This document shows, in pieces, positions 120 through 63,310 of a stretch of DNA of 64,000 bases. Numbering within the stretch: the stretch's first letter is position 1; every line of letters begins with the position of its first letter. This DNA comes from Tubulanus polymorphus (lineage: Eukaryota; Nemertea; Palaeonemertea; Tubulaniformes; Tubulanidae), in contig NC_134033.1 of NCBI RefSeq assembly GCF_964204645.1, forward strand, positions 663,631-727,630, written 5' to 3'. Made by a program: the position numbers and the translations under genes. The notes below the pieces were generated by a model that saw only the letters and a list, made by a program, of their open reading frames with translations, did no database searches and was not told where the DNA came from.

Positions 120-217
120 CTTCAAATGGGATATTTCAATCTATCCCTGGTTTTACCCTAAGCTTTCAAACTTAGCTGTATGAACTGTTTGGCACATTGT
201 CCAGAGAGGTTTATATA
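120..217 (-). promoter_or_regulatory. Promoter and 5' UTR exon of a cluster gene off the left edge
   Basis: On the minus strand a TATATAAA box lies at 210-217. The start is expected near 181-187, and a non-coding exon ends at 120 before a GTGAGT donor. The exon carries the two hairpins described for the other copies. The coding exons of this gene lie left of the window. Confidence 0.8.
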
Positions 218-854: not shown

Positions 855-1331
855 TTATTTCCGCCCAAAGCCGTAAGCCGCGTCATCAGCTGGTCCATAT
901 TGATCAGTAACGATGATCGTATCACCGTTTGCCAGATCGATGACATCAGAATTTCCCTTACGATAACGATCAACGATTTTCTCGCCTTCCAAATCAGCTT
1001 CTAAAGTGCCCGGTTTTGGTTTTGGTCGTCCGTAATTTGGTCGTCTGCGTGGATGACGACGAACTCCATAACCTCCATGGTATCTTCCTATATAACCTCC
1101 GTGACCTCTTCCTCTATATCCTCCACCTCCAACATAACGTCCACTATAACCTCCCAAATTATATCCTCCTGCATGAATTCCTGGTCCAGTTTCATAATTC
1201 TGTGCTTGAACTTAAATATAAGAATATTTCAATGAAATTCCATGAACTTGTTTTAACAGTGATTATGATTTCTGTGGAGACTTACCGAAGGCGACACTGG
1301 CCAACGCAACCACTACCAATATTATATTCAT
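855..1331 (-). CDS. Small secreted Gly/Tyr-rich protein, copy 1 (133 aa)
   Basis: The coding sequence joins 1286-1331 and 855-1210 on the minus strand. The first coding exon is 46 nt and ends in phase 1 at a GTAAGT donor. The acceptor TTTAAG is chosen because only it keeps the frame in copy 3. The signal peptide reads MNIILVVVALASVAFGVQA, then Q. The mature chain is a short Gly/Tyr/Arg region with YSGRYVG and YIGRYHG, a basic stretch (RRHPRRRPNYGRPKPKP), then the family block from GTLEADLEGEK through RKGNSDVIDLANGD to DQYGPADD. It lacks the long silk-like and acidic parts of the right-hand genes. A poly(A) signal AATAAA is at 763-768. The role is unknown; the composition suggests an extracellular structural protein. 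Confidence 0.88.
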
Positions 1332-1460
1332 AGCTTCTTTAATCGTCAGTTTGTCTATAAAAACCAAAGGAGCAAATCATATGATAAAACCTTTCGCGGT
1401 AGAAAACCTTTATAAAACTGAACATTATAAAACAATGAAAAGAATCGATGTTGAACTCAC

Positions 1461-1558
1461 CTTCAGTTGGGATATTTCAATCTATCCCTGGTTTTACCCT
1501 AAGCTTTCAAACTTAGCTGTATGAACTGTTTGGCACATTGTCCAGAGAGGTTTATATA
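1461..1558 (-). promoter_or_regulatory. TATA promoter and hairpin-bearing 5' UTR exon of copy 1
   Basis: The TATA box TATATAAA is at 1551-1558. The likely start is near 1522-1527. The non-coding exon ends at 1461 before GTGAGT. In the RNA, CUAAG/CUUAG (1499-1516) and GGGAUA/UAUCCC (1469-1488) can each close a loop of 8 nt; the loops read UUUGAAAG and GAUUGAAA. A further block conserved between copies lies upstream at about 1601-1690. Confidence 0.8.
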
Positions 1559-2792: not shown

Positions 2793-2890
2793 CTTCAAAT
2801 GGGATATTTCAATCTATCCCTGGTTCTACCCTAAGCTTTCACACTTAGCTGCATGAACTGTTTGGCACACTGTCCAGGGAGGTTTATAAA
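2793..2890 (-). promoter_or_regulatory. Promoter and 5' UTR exon of copy 2
   Basis: A TATA-like TTTATAAA at 2883-2890 replaces TATATAAA. The donor GTGAGT follows the exon edge at 2793. The upper hairpin loop has changed to UGUGAAAG while its CUAAG/CUUAG stem is intact. The second hairpin is unchanged. Confidence 0.75.
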
Positions 2891-3855: not shown

Positions 3856-3953
3856 CTTTAGTTGGGATATTTCAATCTATCCCTGGTTCTACCCTAAGCT
3901 TTCAAACTTAGCTGTATGAACTGTTTGGTACATTGTCCAGAGAGGTTTATATA
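3856..3953 (-). promoter_or_regulatory. Promoter and 5' UTR exon of copy 3
   Basis: The TATA box is at 3946-3953 and the donor is GTAAGT next to 3856. Both hairpins are intact, and the spacing from TATA box to donor is again 98 bp. Confidence 0.75.
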
Positions 3954-5322: not shown

Positions 5323-5420
5323 CTTTAATTGGGATATTTCAATCTATCCCAGGTTCTACCCTAAGCTTTCAAACTTAGCTGCAAAAAATGTTTGTCACAT
5401 TGTCCAGGGAAGTTTATATA
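5323..5420 (-). promoter_or_regulatory. Promoter and 5' UTR exon of copy 4
   Basis: TATATAAA is at 5413-5420 and the donor GTGAGT is next to 5323. Both hairpin stems are intact. The family upstream block can still be recognised at about 5465-5550. Confidence 0.75.
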
Positions 5421-7053: not shown

Positions 7054-8246
7054 TTATCCTGTCTCCTGGTCGACATATATCACACCGTCACCGTCATCTT
7101 CCTTATCGTCATCTTCATCAACATCATCATCGTCATCATCACCATCAGATCGCCCCATACCATAATACCCATCCTCTTCATAATAACCGTCCTCTTCATA
7201 ATATACCTCATCGACCTCGTATGTCTCCTGGTCGACGTAAGTCTCCTGGTCGACGTATGCCTCTTCGTCGACGTATGTCTCCTGGTCGACATATGTCTCC
7301 TGGTCGACATAAGCTGGACCATACGCATCTTCTACGACGATTGTATCACCGTTTGCCAGATCGATGACATCAGAATTTCCCTTACGATAACGTTTAATGA
7401 TTTTCTGGCCTTCCAAATCAGCTTCTAAAGTGCCTGGTTTTGGTTTTGGTCGTCCGTAACTTGGTCGTCTGCGTGGACGACGACGAATTGGTCTGTAGCC
7501 ACCACCTCCTCCAACATGGCCACCTCCACCGCCACCTCCATAACCTCCTCCTCCAACATGGCCACCTCCACCGCCGCCTCCATAACCTCCTCCTCCAACA
7601 TGGCCACCTCCACCGCCGCCTCCATAACCTCCTCCTCCTACATGACCACCTCCTCCATGGCCTCCTCCTCCATAACCTCCACCTCCGACATGACCTCCAC
7701 CATGTCCTCCACCACCACCTCCTCCGTAACCTCCACCATGACCTCTGTGCCCTCCGTGGCTTCCATGACCTCCTGCTATTCCAACGTATCCCCCACCTGG
7801 AGCTGGTCGATCATGACCTCCTCCACCACCGCCATAGCCTCCTACATGTCCTCCATGACCATGACCTCCTGAAGGACCTGGGCCATAACCACCTGGTCCT
7901 GACGGGCCTGGGCCATAATCTCCTGGTCCTGGGCCGTATCCACCTGGTCCCGCTGGGCCTGGGCCATGATCTCCTGGTCCTGCTGGGCCTGGACCATAAT
8001 CTCCTGGTCCTGCTGGGCCTGGTCCATAATCTCCTGGTCCTGCTGGACCTGGCCCATAACCACCCGGTCCTGGCCGATGATCAGCTGGTCCTGGCCCATG
8101 ATCAGCTGGTCCATACTGAGCTGAAAGTTGGAGATAGAAATGTATAAGATGCGGTAAATCAAGTAAATCAGTGTAATTAATGATTTCTGCAGAGACTTAC
8201 CGAAGGCGACACTGGCCAACGCAACCACTACCAATATTACATTCAT
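7054..8246 (-). CDS. Secreted silk-like GPGxY/Gly-His protein with acidic tail (370 aa)
   Basis: Exons 8201-8246 (signal start) and 7054-8120 on the minus strand; the acceptor is CTTTCAG. The signal peptide MNVILVVVALASVAFA is followed by QYGPADH. Residues about 18-100 are GPGPAGPGDY and GPGGY repeats, like spider-silk GPGGX motifs in composition. Residues about 100-225 are poly-Gly with regular HVGGGGYGG units. Then come the basic linker RPIRRRPRRRPSYGRPKPKP, the conserved block GTLEADLEGQK to GDTIVVEDAYG (about 240-285), repeats of TYVDQE, and a D/E-rich end. A 3' UTR intron (6474-7034, donor GTAAAT) leads to a terminal exon at about 6350-6473. The shape suggests an extracellular structural or adhesive protein; tyrosine could serve crosslinking and the acidic tail metal binding (inference). 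Confidence 0.86.
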
Positions 8247-8376: not shown

Positions 8377-8474
8377 CTCGAATTGGGATATTTCAATCTA
8401 TCCCTGGTTCTACCCTAAGTTTTCAAACTTAGCTGCATAAACTGTTTAGCGTATCGTCCAGACTGGTTTATATA
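8377..8474 (-). promoter_or_regulatory. Promoter and 5' UTR exon of the 370-aa gene
   Basis: TATATAAA is at 8467-8474 and the donor GTGAGC is next to 8377. Both hairpins are preserved although the flanking intron has diverged fully from the left copies. The conserved upstream block lies at about 8525-8625. Confidence 0.78.
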
Positions 8475-9348: not shown

Positions 9349-10780
9349 CTACTCATCGGCATCGGCATCGGCATCTGCATCATCGGCATCTGCAGCATCG
9401 TCAGTAGCGGCATCATCATCGGCATCATCTGCATCAGCATCATCAGCATCATCTTCCACATCAGCGGATCGACCTATACCCGATGTAGTACCGTAAGTTA
9501 CTTCCTCGTAAACCTCTGCTTCGTAGCTTCCTTCATCGTCATAGTCTCCAACATCGGCACGACCCTGAGCTTCACCGTAACTTTCTGCCTCGTAAATCGC
9601 CTCGGCGTAACTCGCTTCCTCGTAACTTTTTTCGTCCACGTAGTCTCCAACATCGGCACGGCCCTGAGCCGCTGCTGCCGCTGCTGCCGCCGCCGCAGCT
9701 GCCTGCTCTTCCTCGTATTCTGCCTTTTCGTAATCTTCTTCGGTATCGTACTCTTCAACATCGGCACGTCCAGCGACCTCTTCAGGGACCTCATAATTAT
9801 CATTGTCATCATCATCACCCTCTCCATAGGCGTCCTTTATGACAACCTTTCCACCGTCATCCAGATCCAGTATTTCATCATCTCCCTTACGGTCCTTTTT
9901 AACTACTTTCTTGCCTTTCAATCCTCTTTTTAATTGAGCTTTACTTGGTCTTGGATGTCCGTGAATTGGTGGTCTGTGAAGAATTGGTCCGTATCCAAAG
10001 CCTCCTCCTCCACCACCGCCTCCATAACCTCCTCCTACGAAATGACCTACACCATGTCCTCCTCCATAACCTTCTCCACCACCTCCTCCATAACCTCCTC
10101 CGCCTCCTCCTCCATAACCTCCTCCACCACCGCCTGCGAAATGACCTACACCATGTCCTCCTCCATAACCTTCTCCACCACCTCCTCCATAACCTCCTCC
10201 GCCTCCTCCTCCATAACCTCCTCCGCCGCCTCCTCCATAACCTCCTCCGTGACTCATATGACCTCCTCCATAACCTTCTCCGCCACCTCCTCCATAACCT
10301 CCTCCATAACCTCCTCCATGATCAAAATGACCTCCTCCATAACCTTCTCCGCCACCTCCTCCATAACCTCCTCCATGATCAAAATGACCTCCACCATGGC
10401 CCATATGGGCATCTGGTCCGTAACCTCCAGCTCCGTGATGGTCCATATGGTCCATATGCCCACCTGGTCCATATCCGCCATCTCCTAAGTGGCCCATGTG
10501 GTCATCTGGTCCGTAACCATGGTCCATATAGCCTCCTGGACCATCTCCTAAATGGCCTCCAGGTCCGTCCATATATCCTCCGCCATGGTCTGGACCTGGG
10601 CCATAAGGACCGTAGTCCATATCAGGACCACCATAACCTTGTGCTGAAAATCAAATAACGAAACGTAAGAAGTTCGTTAACGAAAAACATGTCATGTTAT
10701 TTTGATGATGATTATGATTTCTGCTGATGCTTACCCAAGGCGACACTGGCCAACGCAATTGCTACCAATATTATATTCAT
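9349..10780 (-). CDS. Secreted poly-Gly/Tyr/His protein with Ala run and Asp-rich tail (446 aa)
   Basis: Exons 10735-10780 and 9349-10643 on the minus strand. The signal peptide MNIILVAIALASVALA is followed by QGYGGPD. Residues about 24-100 carry GPGG, HMDH and GYGPD motifs. Residues about 100-235 are GGGYGGGGGEGYGGGH repeats with HF and HM. The family block is diverged: LKRGLKGKKVVKKDRKGDDE, then LDLDDGGKVVIKDAYGE (about 251-289). The tail is unique in the cluster: an alanine run, repeated GRADVGDY and SYEEASYAE units, and an A/D-rich end. A 3' UTR intron (9173-9339) leads to a terminal exon at about 9060-9172 with AATAAA at 9072-9077. It is the most diverged member, yet its promoter is standard for the family. 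Confidence 0.86.
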
Positions 10781-10922: not shown

Positions 10923-11020
10923 CTTCAATTGGGATATTTCAATCTATCCCTGGTTCTACCCTAAGCTTTCAAACTTAGCTGCATAAACTGTTTGGCACAC
11001 TGTCCAGGGCGGTTTATATA
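10923..11020 (-). promoter_or_regulatory. Promoter and 5' UTR exon of the 446-aa gene
   Basis: TATATAAA is at 11013-11020 and the donor GTGAGT is next to 10923. Both hairpins are intact. The intron that follows contains a run of 13 G at about 10893-10905. The upstream conserved block lies at about 11073-11165. Confidence 0.78.
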
Positions 11021-13769: not shown

Positions 13770-15017
13770 TTATTCATACTCATCATCGTCATCTTCCTCA
13801 TCGTCGTATGAATCTTCCTCGACGACTGTAACTGTTTCTCCGTCATCGGAACGTCCGCCATAATAGCTTTCCTCCATTCCGTAAGACTCTTCATCGTCGT
13901 AATAGGTCTCCTCGTCGACATAGTCCTCGTAATCTTCGTAATCCTCATAATCTTCTCGATCTTCGTAATCCTCATAATCCTCATAATCTTCATGATCTTC
14001 GTAATCTTCATGATCTTCGTAATCTTCATAATCTTCGTAATCCTCATAATCTTCATGATCTTCGTAATCCTCATAATCCTCATAATCTTCGTAATCCTCG
14101 TCATAACTATCAGCTGGACCATACGCATCTTCTACAATGATCGTGTCACCGTTTGCCAGATCGATGACATCAGAATTTCCCTTACGATAACGATCAACGA
14201 TTTTCTCGCCTTCTAAATCAGCTTCTAAAGTGCCTGGTTTTGGTTTTGGTCGTCCGTAACTTGGTCGTCTGCGTGGACGACGACGAATTGGTCTGTAGCC
14301 ACCACCTCCTCCAACATTGCCTCCTCCACCACCTCCTCCAGCATGGCCTCCTCCATAACCTCCACCTCCTACATGACCACCTCCATGTCCTCCATGACCT
14401 CTTGGTACACCAACATATCCTCCAACTGGACCGGGGCCTTGGGGACCTGGGCCATAAGGTCCAGGACCTGCTGGGCCTGGGCCATAACCTCCTGGACCAC
14501 CTGGTCCAACTGGACCTGGGCCATAATCACCTGGTCCAACTGGACCTGGGCCATAATCACCTGGTCCTACGGGACCTGGTCCATAATCACCTGGTCCTGG
14601 GCCGTATCCTCCTGGACCACTTGGCCCTGCTGGGCCTGGGCCATAACCACCTGGACCACCTGGTCCTACTGGGCCTGGTCCATAATCACCTGGTCCTGGA
14701 CCAATAGGACCTGGTCCATAAGGTCCAGGTCCACTTGGACCTGGACCATAATCACCTGGGCCAGGGCCAATGGGACCTGGACCGTATCCTCCTGGACCAC
14801 CGATAGGTCCATGGCCACCGGGACCTGGACCATATTCAGCGGGGCCTGGGCCCATGGCCATAGGACCTGGTCCTGGTCCATACTGAGCTGAAAGTTAGAG
14901 AAAGATATGTTGATTAAGATGCGTTGAACCAAGATTAATCAGTGTCCTTAATGATTTCTGCAGAGACTTACCGAAGGCGACACCGGCCAACGCAACTACG
15001 ACCAATAATATATTCAT
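13770..15017 (-). CDS. Secreted silk-like GPGGY protein with DYE-repeat tail (387 aa)
   Basis: Exons 14972-15017 and 13770-14887 on the minus strand. The signal peptide MNILLVVVALAGVAFA is followed by QYGPGPG. Residues about 18-170 are GPGGYGPGP and GPGDYGPGPVGP repeats. About 170-213 is Gly/His-rich, and 214-228 is RPIRRRPRRRPSYGR. The conserved block spans about 229-271 and ends in IIVEDAYGPA. The tail is a run of DYEDYEDHE-type units followed by TYYDDEESYGMEESYYGGRS and an acidic end. The stop is 3 nt before a GTAAGG donor, so the next intron (13391-13766) is in the 3' UTR; the last exon is about 13245-13390 with AATAAA at 13262-13267. It is likely an extracellular fibre or matrix protein (inference from composition only). 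Confidence 0.87.
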
Positions 15018-15214: not shown

Positions 15215-15314
15215 CTTTAGATGGGATATTTCAATCTATCCCTGGTGCTCTACCCTAAGTTTTCAAACCTAGCTGTGTGAACTGTTTGTCACATTGTCCA
15301 GAGAGGTTTATATA
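15215..15314 (-). promoter_or_regulatory. Promoter and 5' UTR exon of the 387-aa gene
   Basis: TATATAAA is at 15307-15314 and the donor GTGAGT is next to 15215. The interval is 100 bp instead of 98, because of two extra bases between the hairpins. Hairpin stems are at 15223-15242 and 15255-15272. The second has CUAGG opposite CUUAG, which still pairs through one G-U wobble on the RNA strand. Confidence 0.78.
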
Positions 15315-60869: not shown

Positions 60870-63310
60870 CGAATATTGAACACTGTAAATCTATAAATGA
60901 ATCAAAGGTGACATTTTTATTTATTTAATTAATGACATTTTGTGAAACTGATTGTTAATGATGACACACAGTTTTAAATCTGAGAGACAAATTCATTATT
61001 GTAAAAATCAATCGATCGAATTTACAGAAGCCTTTATCATTACACACCACATTAGAATAATGACCAACAGTCGGCGCTAATCCAGCAGTCCGAGGACCTT
61101 TACAGAGTTACCTCTAGAGTACTAGGACCTCCTTACTGGGAGGTTCAAGGGAGTGCAAGAAATACCTCTATGCGCGGACCTCCAAACTGACAGGACCTTT
61201 ATCGTGCTAGAGATTACCTCTAGGTGTACTAGGACCTCCTAACTGGGAGGTTCAAGGGAGGAACCACCGTCCTAGAATTTAGCGATTTCAAAACAGTTTT
61301 TCATGATAAGAAAAGTACATTCATATTCAATCTAATACTACTACACTGACATTAAACCAAAAACACTCCACGCCGGATCCTCGAGTCGTTTACAAGATGG
61401 CCGCCTTCACGAACTCACTATGACATCATCAACTATTCGATTCATTGGAACGAACAGTTTGAAATAATAGCGGTAGAATGTGTAATTAGTGATGTCATAG
61501 GAGGAATGCACGGAGGCCATGTTAGAAGTCAATCGAATGAGGCGTCTCGTAATGACGTGATTGGGTTAATTTGACTGAAGCTTTAAACCGTTATTTACAC
61601 AATATTTTATATACAATATGGCCGCCATGAAGCTAGTTAATCTTCAAAATACTCTTTTAACACAGTAAAAAAGTGAAAACTCAAGCTTAAGTCGTAGTTA
61701 TCACGACTTATTCAAATGATGACTTACACCTAGTAAATAGAATTAGAAATACAAATCCGGACTCGAACTTACAGTAGAACTTGCTTACCGGTAATTTCGG
61801 ATTTTCATCAAATACAGATGAAATATTCGATCCATTTAACCTAGAACCATGTAAATAACTATTCATAATTGGGATTTTACTTAATTTGGTCAGTCACCCG
61901 AATTACAGCGAGTTCTACCCTAGAGTCTAATTCAATAACGCGACGACTTGCAACTAGAGTTCGACTGATCTGATCTATAAACAATTCGACACGATAGAGA
62001 AAGCGGAACAATTGAGGAGAGACGCTGCCTCAGGTGTGAGGGGTGAATTTAAACCTGTACGAGTGAAGAAGCCATGTATTCTATCCATGGAACCAAAACA
62101 TTTATTTACTTACCTTGAAAAATTCTAAGGGGCCGAGACCAGTGATTACGTATGCCGTACAAACTAGACCAACATTTCTAAAATGACTATTTCTCAAAAT
62201 CGAAAGAGTTTTAAGGGCGAGTTTCAGGCATTTTGCTCAAATTAGTTTTGAAGATGCACCTTTAAAAACATTTCCGTTTTGAAGGAATGAAGGAGTCGTA
62301 AAGACCAAGCTCTACTCCTCGTTTCAGCGTAGGACGTATTTTCACTAAACGGCCGTCTCTAAACCGGGTTCACGGAAGACAAGAAAAAAACCGATTCCGC
62401 AACAATCAATTTACCAATTATACACTTCACAACATGAGAGACATCATATCAAACTAATTAAACTGGTTATTAATTAAACCAATTATCAATTAATTAATTA
62501 ATTAATCGATCAATGCTAATAAGAGAATCAGTTGGAATGTCATCATATATCAAAGACGTTACGACACAAGTAGAAAATGATCCCTGAATTTCATCGGTGT
62601 CATCATTGATACAGCGTATCGTATCTGATACATCGGTGTAATCATTGATACAGCGTATTGTATCTGATACACAGATCCCTGCTGATTGAGGCTCCTCTTA
62701 AACAGAGAAAGGTGCGCTGAAAAACTGGTGACTTTCAACTATAGGTAACACAGCTACCGACACAACAGCTATTAGCAGCTATTGACAGCTACTAAAGGCC
62801 ACTTACTAACATGACAGATACCGTCGTGACTGAACATTTCACACCTTACGTTCATTCAAAACGTTTAAATCAATACAGAATCAAATAACTGAAATAGATT
62901 CATCCATCGATTCCTCTACAGACACAGATTCCTCTACAGATTCATCCATAAATTCCTCGAGAGGGAAATAAAAACACTTTTAGAATCAGCTTCAAAATGT
63001 GGCTTATTTCAATCATAGAACGATGAACTGTTCATTAAACCGGTTGTCTCTCTAGCGTGTCAAGGTACCACTCCCTTGTCTCTCTAACGTGTCGTGGTAC
63101 CACTCCCTCCAGTAACACCACTCCCTCCGGTAACAAATAATAAATCTCTCTCACAAATCACATTCCTCACGTTCTTTTTTACACAAACGCAATTTCTATT
63201 TTTTCTCTCTCTTTCTCAAATATACGGAACACATAATCAGGTTTATAACAATCGGTAATCGCTATGACGACGCGCGAATGCTGCTGCTATGACGACGGAG
63301 TAATATAGAG
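60870..63310. other. Region between CUL4 and ARGLU1, probably including the ARGLU1 3' UTR
   Basis: No coding region. It has a direct repeat with AGGACCTCCTAACTGGGAGG (61120-61265), a short repeat of ATACATCGGTGTAATCATTG type (62590-62665), and one of GGTACCACTCCCT (63065-63130). TTTATT motifs at about 60916-60924 could serve as minus-strand poly(A) signals. Confidence 0.45.

What the first reader, a model, noticed from the sequence alone, without database searches (positions are those of the whole stretch)
1461..1528. Twin hairpins with a shared UUGAAA loop in the 5' UTR exon of every cluster gene
Read on the RNA strand, the non-coding first exon forms CUAAG-(UUUGAAAG)-CUUAG and GGGAUA-(GAUUGAAA)-UAUCCC. 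Both 8-nt loops contain UUGAAA, except in copy 2, where the first loop is UGUGAAAG. Between them GGU and ACC can also pair. The pattern is present at 120-187, 1461-1528, 2793-2860, 3856-3923, 5323-5390, 8377-8444, 10923-10990 and 15215-15282, although the introns beside it have diverged completely between left and right genes. A doubled motif of this kind could bind a dimeric or two-domain protein and control stability, export or translation of secreted-protein mRNAs. I know of no named element like it.
Basis: partly seen in the sequence, partly recalled or inferred. Interest (0 to 1): 0.72.

Follow-up and report, generated by a model that had tools for sequence, protein, structure and literature searches.

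The report
Conserved twin hairpins in 5' UTR
Twelve neighbouring animal genes for secreted, glycine-rich structural proteins all begin their messenger RNA with the same small pair of hairpins, kept almost unchanged while most of the surrounding non-coding DNA drifted, which suggests a shared control signal with an unknown partner, although paired mutations do not yet prove the hairpins.

Summary
All eight copies are present on the minus strand, and the whole assembly shows four more just left of the window: 12 copies in 12 genes of one tandem cluster, and none elsewhere in 268 Mb. In each, a TATA-like box lies about 31 nt upstream of a CAGTT initiator-like site in most copies. A 67-69 nt non-coding exon then ends at a good 5' splice site, so the element is probably transcribed and starts close to the cap. 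The hairpins are the most conserved DNA of the gene (89-100% identity between copies, against 28-84% in intron 1). Twin hairpins sharing a 6-nt loop word arose in 0 of 5000 shuffles. Folding refines hairpin 1: a 7-bp stem with a UGAA loop, extended by seven more pairs to the second transcribed base. However, there are no compensatory changes; stem substitutions (5 keep pairing, 4 break it) are uninformative, so RNA structure is inferred, not shown. The best reading is a cap-proximal RNA element co-regulating a set of secreted structural proteins, working like, but not belonging to, the LARP6-bound collagen 5' stem-loop. DNA-level promoter function remains a real rival. I found no match in Rfam or in the papers searched.

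The parts
1461..1527 (-). Non-coding exon 1 (67 nt) of the copy named in the finding, from the predicted start A (1527) to AAG|GTGAGT
   Evidence: TSS inferred from TATA spacing
1499..1516 (-). Hairpin 1 core CUAAGUU(UGAA)AGCUUAG; outer stem UAC/GUA and GUUC/GAAC reaches 1526 and 1491
   Evidence: pair probabilities 0.98-1.0 except closing U-A 0.64
1469..1488 (-). Hairpin 2 GGGAUA(GAUUGAAA)UAUCCC
   Evidence: 20 of 20 bases identical in 11 of 12 copies
1551..1558 (-). TATATAAA box, 31 bp upstream of the predicted start
   Evidence: alignment; same spacing in all 12 copies, no indels
1286..1354 (-). Exon 2: end of 5' UTR, start codon (1331-1329) and signal peptide MNIILVVVALASVAF
855..1211 (-). 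Open frame of the main coding exon of the same gene (Gly/Tyr-rich, basic, then GTLEADLEGEKIVDRYRKGNSDVIDLANGDTIIV domain)
   Evidence: domain found 12 times, only in this cluster
120..186 (-). Exon 1 copy
2793..2859 (-). Exon 1 copy, loop 1 UGUGAAAG
3856..3922 (-). Exon 1 copy
5323..5389 (-). Exon 1 copy; A to U beside hairpin 2 lengthens its stem to 7 bp
8377..8443 (-). Exon 1 copy; hairpin 1 G-U becomes A-U
10923..10989 (-). Exon 1 copy
15215..15283 (-). Exon 1 copy, most diverged; 2-nt insertion between hairpins, hairpin 1 A-U becomes G-U

Best explanation
The first exon is a 5' UTR cis-element that acts as RNA. Transcription starts about 31 bp after the TATA box, so the mRNA opens with an extended hairpin beginning one base from the cap, followed directly by a second hairpin. 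Both present UGAAA in their loops. After splicing the module sits at the 5' end of a UTR of about 92 nt, upstream of a signal-peptide start codon. A shared RNA-binding protein probably reads the loops and adjusts translation or stability of all 12 mRNAs together, so that a set of co-secreted structural proteins is made in step. Shown: copies, positions, conservation, predicted fold. Inferred: start site, transcription, RNA-level selection, protein partner, effect.
For: Twelve copies, one per gene, only in this cluster. The conserved block is the hairpins, not the whole exon: hairpin columns 4 of 38 variable, flanks 10 of 19. Among divergent copies identity is 0.94-1.0 over hairpin stretches, higher than in the signal-peptide exon (mostly 0.8-0.9), while introns are near random for the right-hand genes. 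The fold is stable (z -2.7 to -3.9), dominant in the ensemble and unchanged when exon 2 is added. The two hairpins have unlike stems, equal design and the same UUGAAA word, and no shuffle of 5000 gives this. Loops are as conserved as stems, as expected for a protein-read loop.
Against: No pair shows a change on both sides. Stem substitutions are 5 pairing-preserving and 4 breaking, about what chance gives. MFEs of natural variants are only mildly better than those of random mutants, and not at all in three copies. A DNA palindrome or a plain conserved promoter-proximal sequence would show the same conservation. No transcript data, no orthologues from other species.
Confidence: 0.47

Rival explanations
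1. The block acts as DNA: a downstream extension of the core promoter (TATA, initiator, then two palindromic sites for dimeric transcription factors) that drives shared strong, tissue-specific transcription of the cluster. The hairpins are the palindromes seen on one strand.
For: Conservation runs on from the TATA box through the start region (0.74-0.90 per 10 bp), and TATA-to-element spacing has no indel in any copy. Both hairpins are inverted repeats with 8-bp spacers.
Against: The spacers are as conserved as the arms and are not palindromic. The two palindromes have unlike half-sites but the same non-palindromic spacer word, odd for one dimeric factor. The strongest conservation lies inside the predicted transcript, and two stem changes (A-U to G-U, G-C to G-U) keep an RNA pair but break the DNA dyad, although other changes do the reverse.
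Confidence: 0.25
2. Ordinary conserved 5' leader of a young tandem family: first exon and signal-peptide exon are kept by general constraint (start site, splicing, leader) and partly by recent duplication or gene conversion, while the mature protein diverges. The hairpins are incidental.
For: Signal-peptide exon is also conserved (0.79-0.97) and the left-hand genes are recent duplicates with near-identical introns. There is no covariation.
Against: Right-hand genes have lost alignment in introns (0.28-0.39) yet keep 20 of 20 bases of hairpin 2. Exon flanks next to the splice site and start are less conserved than the hairpins. Conversion tracts cut exactly at exon edges are implausible. The fold beats shuffles.
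Confidence: 0.23
3. The block is a copy of a dispersed repeat or transposable element that happened to supply the first exon.
For: A distant look-alike word (3 mismatches) recurs on C3 and C6.
Against: That repeat shares only the 20-mer and has other flanks. Similarity search with the whole exon finds exactly the 12 cluster copies.
Confidence: 0.03

Closest known systems
Collagen 5' stem-loop bound by LARP6 (type I and III collagen mRNAs)
   Same: A conserved 5' UTR stem-loop confined to a few mRNAs of secreted structural proteins, thought to coordinate their translation and stability (PMC4813270).
   Different: The collagen loop is one 48-nt structure that encloses the start codon 75-85 nt from the cap, with a central bulge read by LARP6 (PMC4813270). 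Here there are two hairpins from about the second nucleotide, without the start codon, and hairpin 1 has no such asymmetric bulge of known sequence.
Iron-responsive element (IRE) of 5' UTRs
   Same: Cap-proximal hairpin able to block or gate translation when a protein binds (general knowledge).
   Different: No CAGUGN loop and no bulged C at the right place; no Rfam match.
Conserved leader and signal exon of fast-evolving secreted gene families (for example conotoxins; general knowledge)
   Same: Leader and signal-peptide parts much more conserved than the mature protein, in a tandem cluster.
   Different: Here the non-coding exon is conserved above the signal exon, and the conservation tracks two hairpins.
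UGAA tetraloop of small-subunit ribosomal RNA
   Same: Hairpin 1 can close a UGAA loop; the solved rRNA UGAA loop (1AFX) is cited in PMC5311481.
   Different: No relation by descent; hairpin 2 prefers an 8-nt loop (-7.1 against -2.2 kcal/mol).

Membership tests
Collagen 5' stem-loop / LARP6 target | Stem-loop encloses the translation start codon | tested here: not met
   Start codon is in exon 2, past exon 1 and an intron
Collagen 5' stem-loop / LARP6 target | Located 75-85 nt from the cap | tested here: not met
   Element begins at about +2 by TATA spacing; the start site is predicted, not mapped
Collagen 5' stem-loop / LARP6 target | Bound by LARP6 | not testable with these tools
   Needs binding assay
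Iron-responsive element | CAGUGN hexaloop and bulged C five pairs below | tested here: not met
   Loops are UGAA / UUUGAAAG and GAUUGAAA; no Rfam match
Twin hairpins cut by IRE1 (XBP1/HAC1 type) | Two 7-nt CNGCNGN loops at splice junctions | tested here: not met
   8-nt or 4-nt loops without this word; exon ends at an ordinary GT splice site
Any Rfam 15 family | Match above gathering score | tested here: not met
   0 matches in the window; only chance-level matches with E-value about 2 or more at the element
Conserved structural RNA element (general) | Compensatory base-pair changes among homologues | tested here: inconclusive
   0 double-sided changes in 20 pairs, but only a few substitutions in the stems
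Conserved structural RNA element (general) | More stable than shuffled sequence | tested here: met
   z -2.65 to -3.86 in five copies

The most novel reading that the evidence does not exclude
A lineage-specific RNA regulon: one RNA-binding protein recognises a doubled UGAAA-loop hairpin at the cap of every mRNA of a tandem cluster of structural secreted proteins and sets their joint output, an invertebrate counterpart of the collagen 5' stem-loop that arose independently.
Probability: 0.33. Interest if true: 0.6.

Novelty: new member of a known kind. Interest (0 to 1): 0.4.

Why it matters
If the hairpins act as RNA, this is a compact, testable case in which a whole set of structural secreted proteins is tuned together by one 5' UTR element rather than by promoters alone, a level of control hardly studied in invertebrate secretions. 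It also explains why the non-coding exon outlasts the protein sequence. If it acts as DNA, it is still a sharply delimited shared promoter-proximal element for the cluster.

Tried and rejected
Genome search for hairpin 2 and hairpin 1 words with up to 3 mismatches: beyond the 12 copies only an unrelated dispersed repeat and chance words. Whole-exon similarity, signal-exon DNA and two coding-domain searches: only this cluster. RNAalifold, pair counts and random-mutant folding gave no support for or against pairing. A shared U(UGAA)A mini-hairpin in hairpin 2 was considered and rejected on energy. Pfam: no family for the proteins. Rfam: none. COX1 was sought to help name the organism: not in the assembly. 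Literature searches for a described element of this kind found only the LARP6 system. The organism was not identified. The bacterial terminator-like hit on the plus strand has no meaning in this animal genome.

Full report
Check of the observation. The eight stretches listed are real and lie on the minus strand, which is the coding strand of the cluster. The window is C9:663631-727630 of a 268-Mb, 77-contig assembly. A pattern search of the assembly finds four more copies immediately to the left, at C9:662409, 661077, 658798 and 656640. The coding C-terminal domain and the signal-peptide exon are likewise found in 12 genes, in this cluster only. So every gene of the cluster found by these searches carries one copy.

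Anatomy. On the minus strand each gene reads: TATA box (TATATAAA in most copies, TTTATAAA or TATCTAAA in three), about 31 bp, then CAGTT in most copies (CATTT at 5350), which resembles an initiator. A first exon of 67 nt (69 in the rightmost gene) follows, with no ATG in most copies. It ends at AAG|GTGAGT or a near variant, intron 1 runs to TATAG or TTCAG, and exon 2 holds about 25 nt of UTR, the ATG and the signal peptide MNIILVVVALASVAF. The spacing from TATA box to hairpins has no indel in any copy. The start site is inferred from this spacing; no transcript data were available.

Fold. ViennaRNA gives, for the consensus, a single dominant structure: hairpin 1 with a 7-bp core and UGAA loop, extended by UAC/GUA and GUUC/GAAC to the second base of the predicted transcript, then hairpin 2 with 6 bp and the 8-nt loop GAUUGAAA. 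Pair probabilities are 0.98-1.0 except for the closing U-A of hairpin 1 (0.64), and adding exon 2 changes nothing. The fold is stronger than dinucleotide shuffles in all five copies tested (z -2.65 to -3.86). Two perfect hairpins of at least 5 bp occur in 79 of 5000 shuffles, and two with a common 6-mer loop in none. In the rest of the window only direct or tandem repeats and self-complementary AT loops give the same signal.

Conservation. Among the divergent genes the hairpins are the best-kept DNA of the locus. In nine pairwise comparisons hairpin 1 is 0.89-1.0 and hairpin 2 0.95-1.0 identical, against 0.28-0.84 for intron 1, 0.33-0.56 for the start of intron 2, 0.43-0.84 upstream of the TATA box, and 0.79-0.97 for the signal-peptide exon. 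Within the exon the hairpin columns are less variable than the flanks (4 of 38 against 10 of 19, p = 0.001). Gene conversion or recent duplication can explain the left-hand genes, but not the rightmost ones, whose introns no longer align. This argues for purifying selection on the hairpin block.

Is it selection on RNA structure? This cannot be settled here. There is no base pair changed on both sides. In the core stems three of four substitutions keep a pair (A-U to G-U, G-U to A-U, G-C to G-U) and one, U to G at the loop-closing position, does not. In the outer stem two of five keep it. Such ratios are near expectation. Folding energies of the natural variants are a little better than those of random mutants in most copies and worse in two. 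The better argument is design: two neighbouring hairpins have quite different stem sequences, each fully paired, while their loops share UUGAAA, and the loops are as invariant as the stems. A loop-reading RNA-binding protein accounts for this more simply than two unlike DNA palindromes with a common non-palindromic spacer. I put RNA-level action at about one half, DNA-level promoter action at one quarter, and incidental folding in an otherwise constrained leader at just under one quarter.

Mechanism. If it is RNA, the position decides much: an extended hairpin starting at +2 lies where the cap-binding complex loads, so binding of a protein would gate or promote initiation, and the second hairpin would give avidity or dimer binding. 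Control of stability by guarding the cap is the next possibility. Export or splicing control is less likely, given an ordinary strong 5' splice site outside the stems. All of this paragraph is inference.

Comparison. The closest working analogue is the LARP6-bound collagen 5' stem-loop (PMC4813270), an element confined to a few mRNAs of secreted structural proteins. Its defining traits, start codon inside the structure and location 75-85 nt from the cap, are not met, so this is not a member. Iron-responsive elements and XBP1-type twin hairpins also fail on loop sequence. Rfam has no match. Literature searches found no description of a twin-hairpin leader in such genes, within an open-access library only.

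What the genes are. The proteins have Gly/Tyr-, Gly/Pro- or His-rich repeats, a basic RRRPRRRP stretch, a shared GTLEADLEGEKIVDRYRKGNSDVIDLANGDTIIV domain and, in the longer ones, acidic tails. Pfam knows none of this. Composition suggests secreted extracellular matrix, tube, shell or adhesive proteins; that is a guess, and the organism was not identified.

Noticed in passing
10923-10989, 8377-8443, 2793-2859 (-): In three copies a point difference creates an upstream ATG at about +6 that opens a 7-codon frame (MQLSLKA, MQLSLKT or MQLSVKA) lying over hairpin 1 and ending inside it; the other copies lack it.
   Followed up: partly
about 90-170 bp upstream of hairpin 2 in each gene: Short conserved words upstream of the TATA box (GTTGACAA, CCTCG) stand out among the divergent copies and may be shared enhancer or promoter sites.
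   Followed up: no
1260-1285 and the same place in the other genes: The start of intron 2 keeps CAGAAATCA just past the splice site while the rest of the intron has diverged.
   Followed up: no
C9:658197-658350 (L010): In the gene of the copy at 658798 the conserved C-terminal domain is split over two reading frames, so this gene may be a pseudogene or carry a frameshift.
   Followed up: no
62600-62670: A direct repeat (CATCGGTGT..ATCATTGATACAGCGTAT.GTATCTGATAC) forms two adjacent hairpins with a common loop word, unrelated to the element.
   Followed up: partly
C3 and C6 (L011, L012, L013): A dispersed repeat contains GGCATGTTTCAATCTACCCC, 3 mismatches from hairpin 2, in otherwise unrelated sequence.
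   Followed up: yes
9349-10650, 7054-8196, 13770-14894 (-): The right-hand genes encode much longer proteins with Gly-Pro-Gly-Tyr or Gly/His repeats, a poly-Ala run and acidic Asp/Glu/Tyr tails, joined to the same signal exon.
   Followed up: partly
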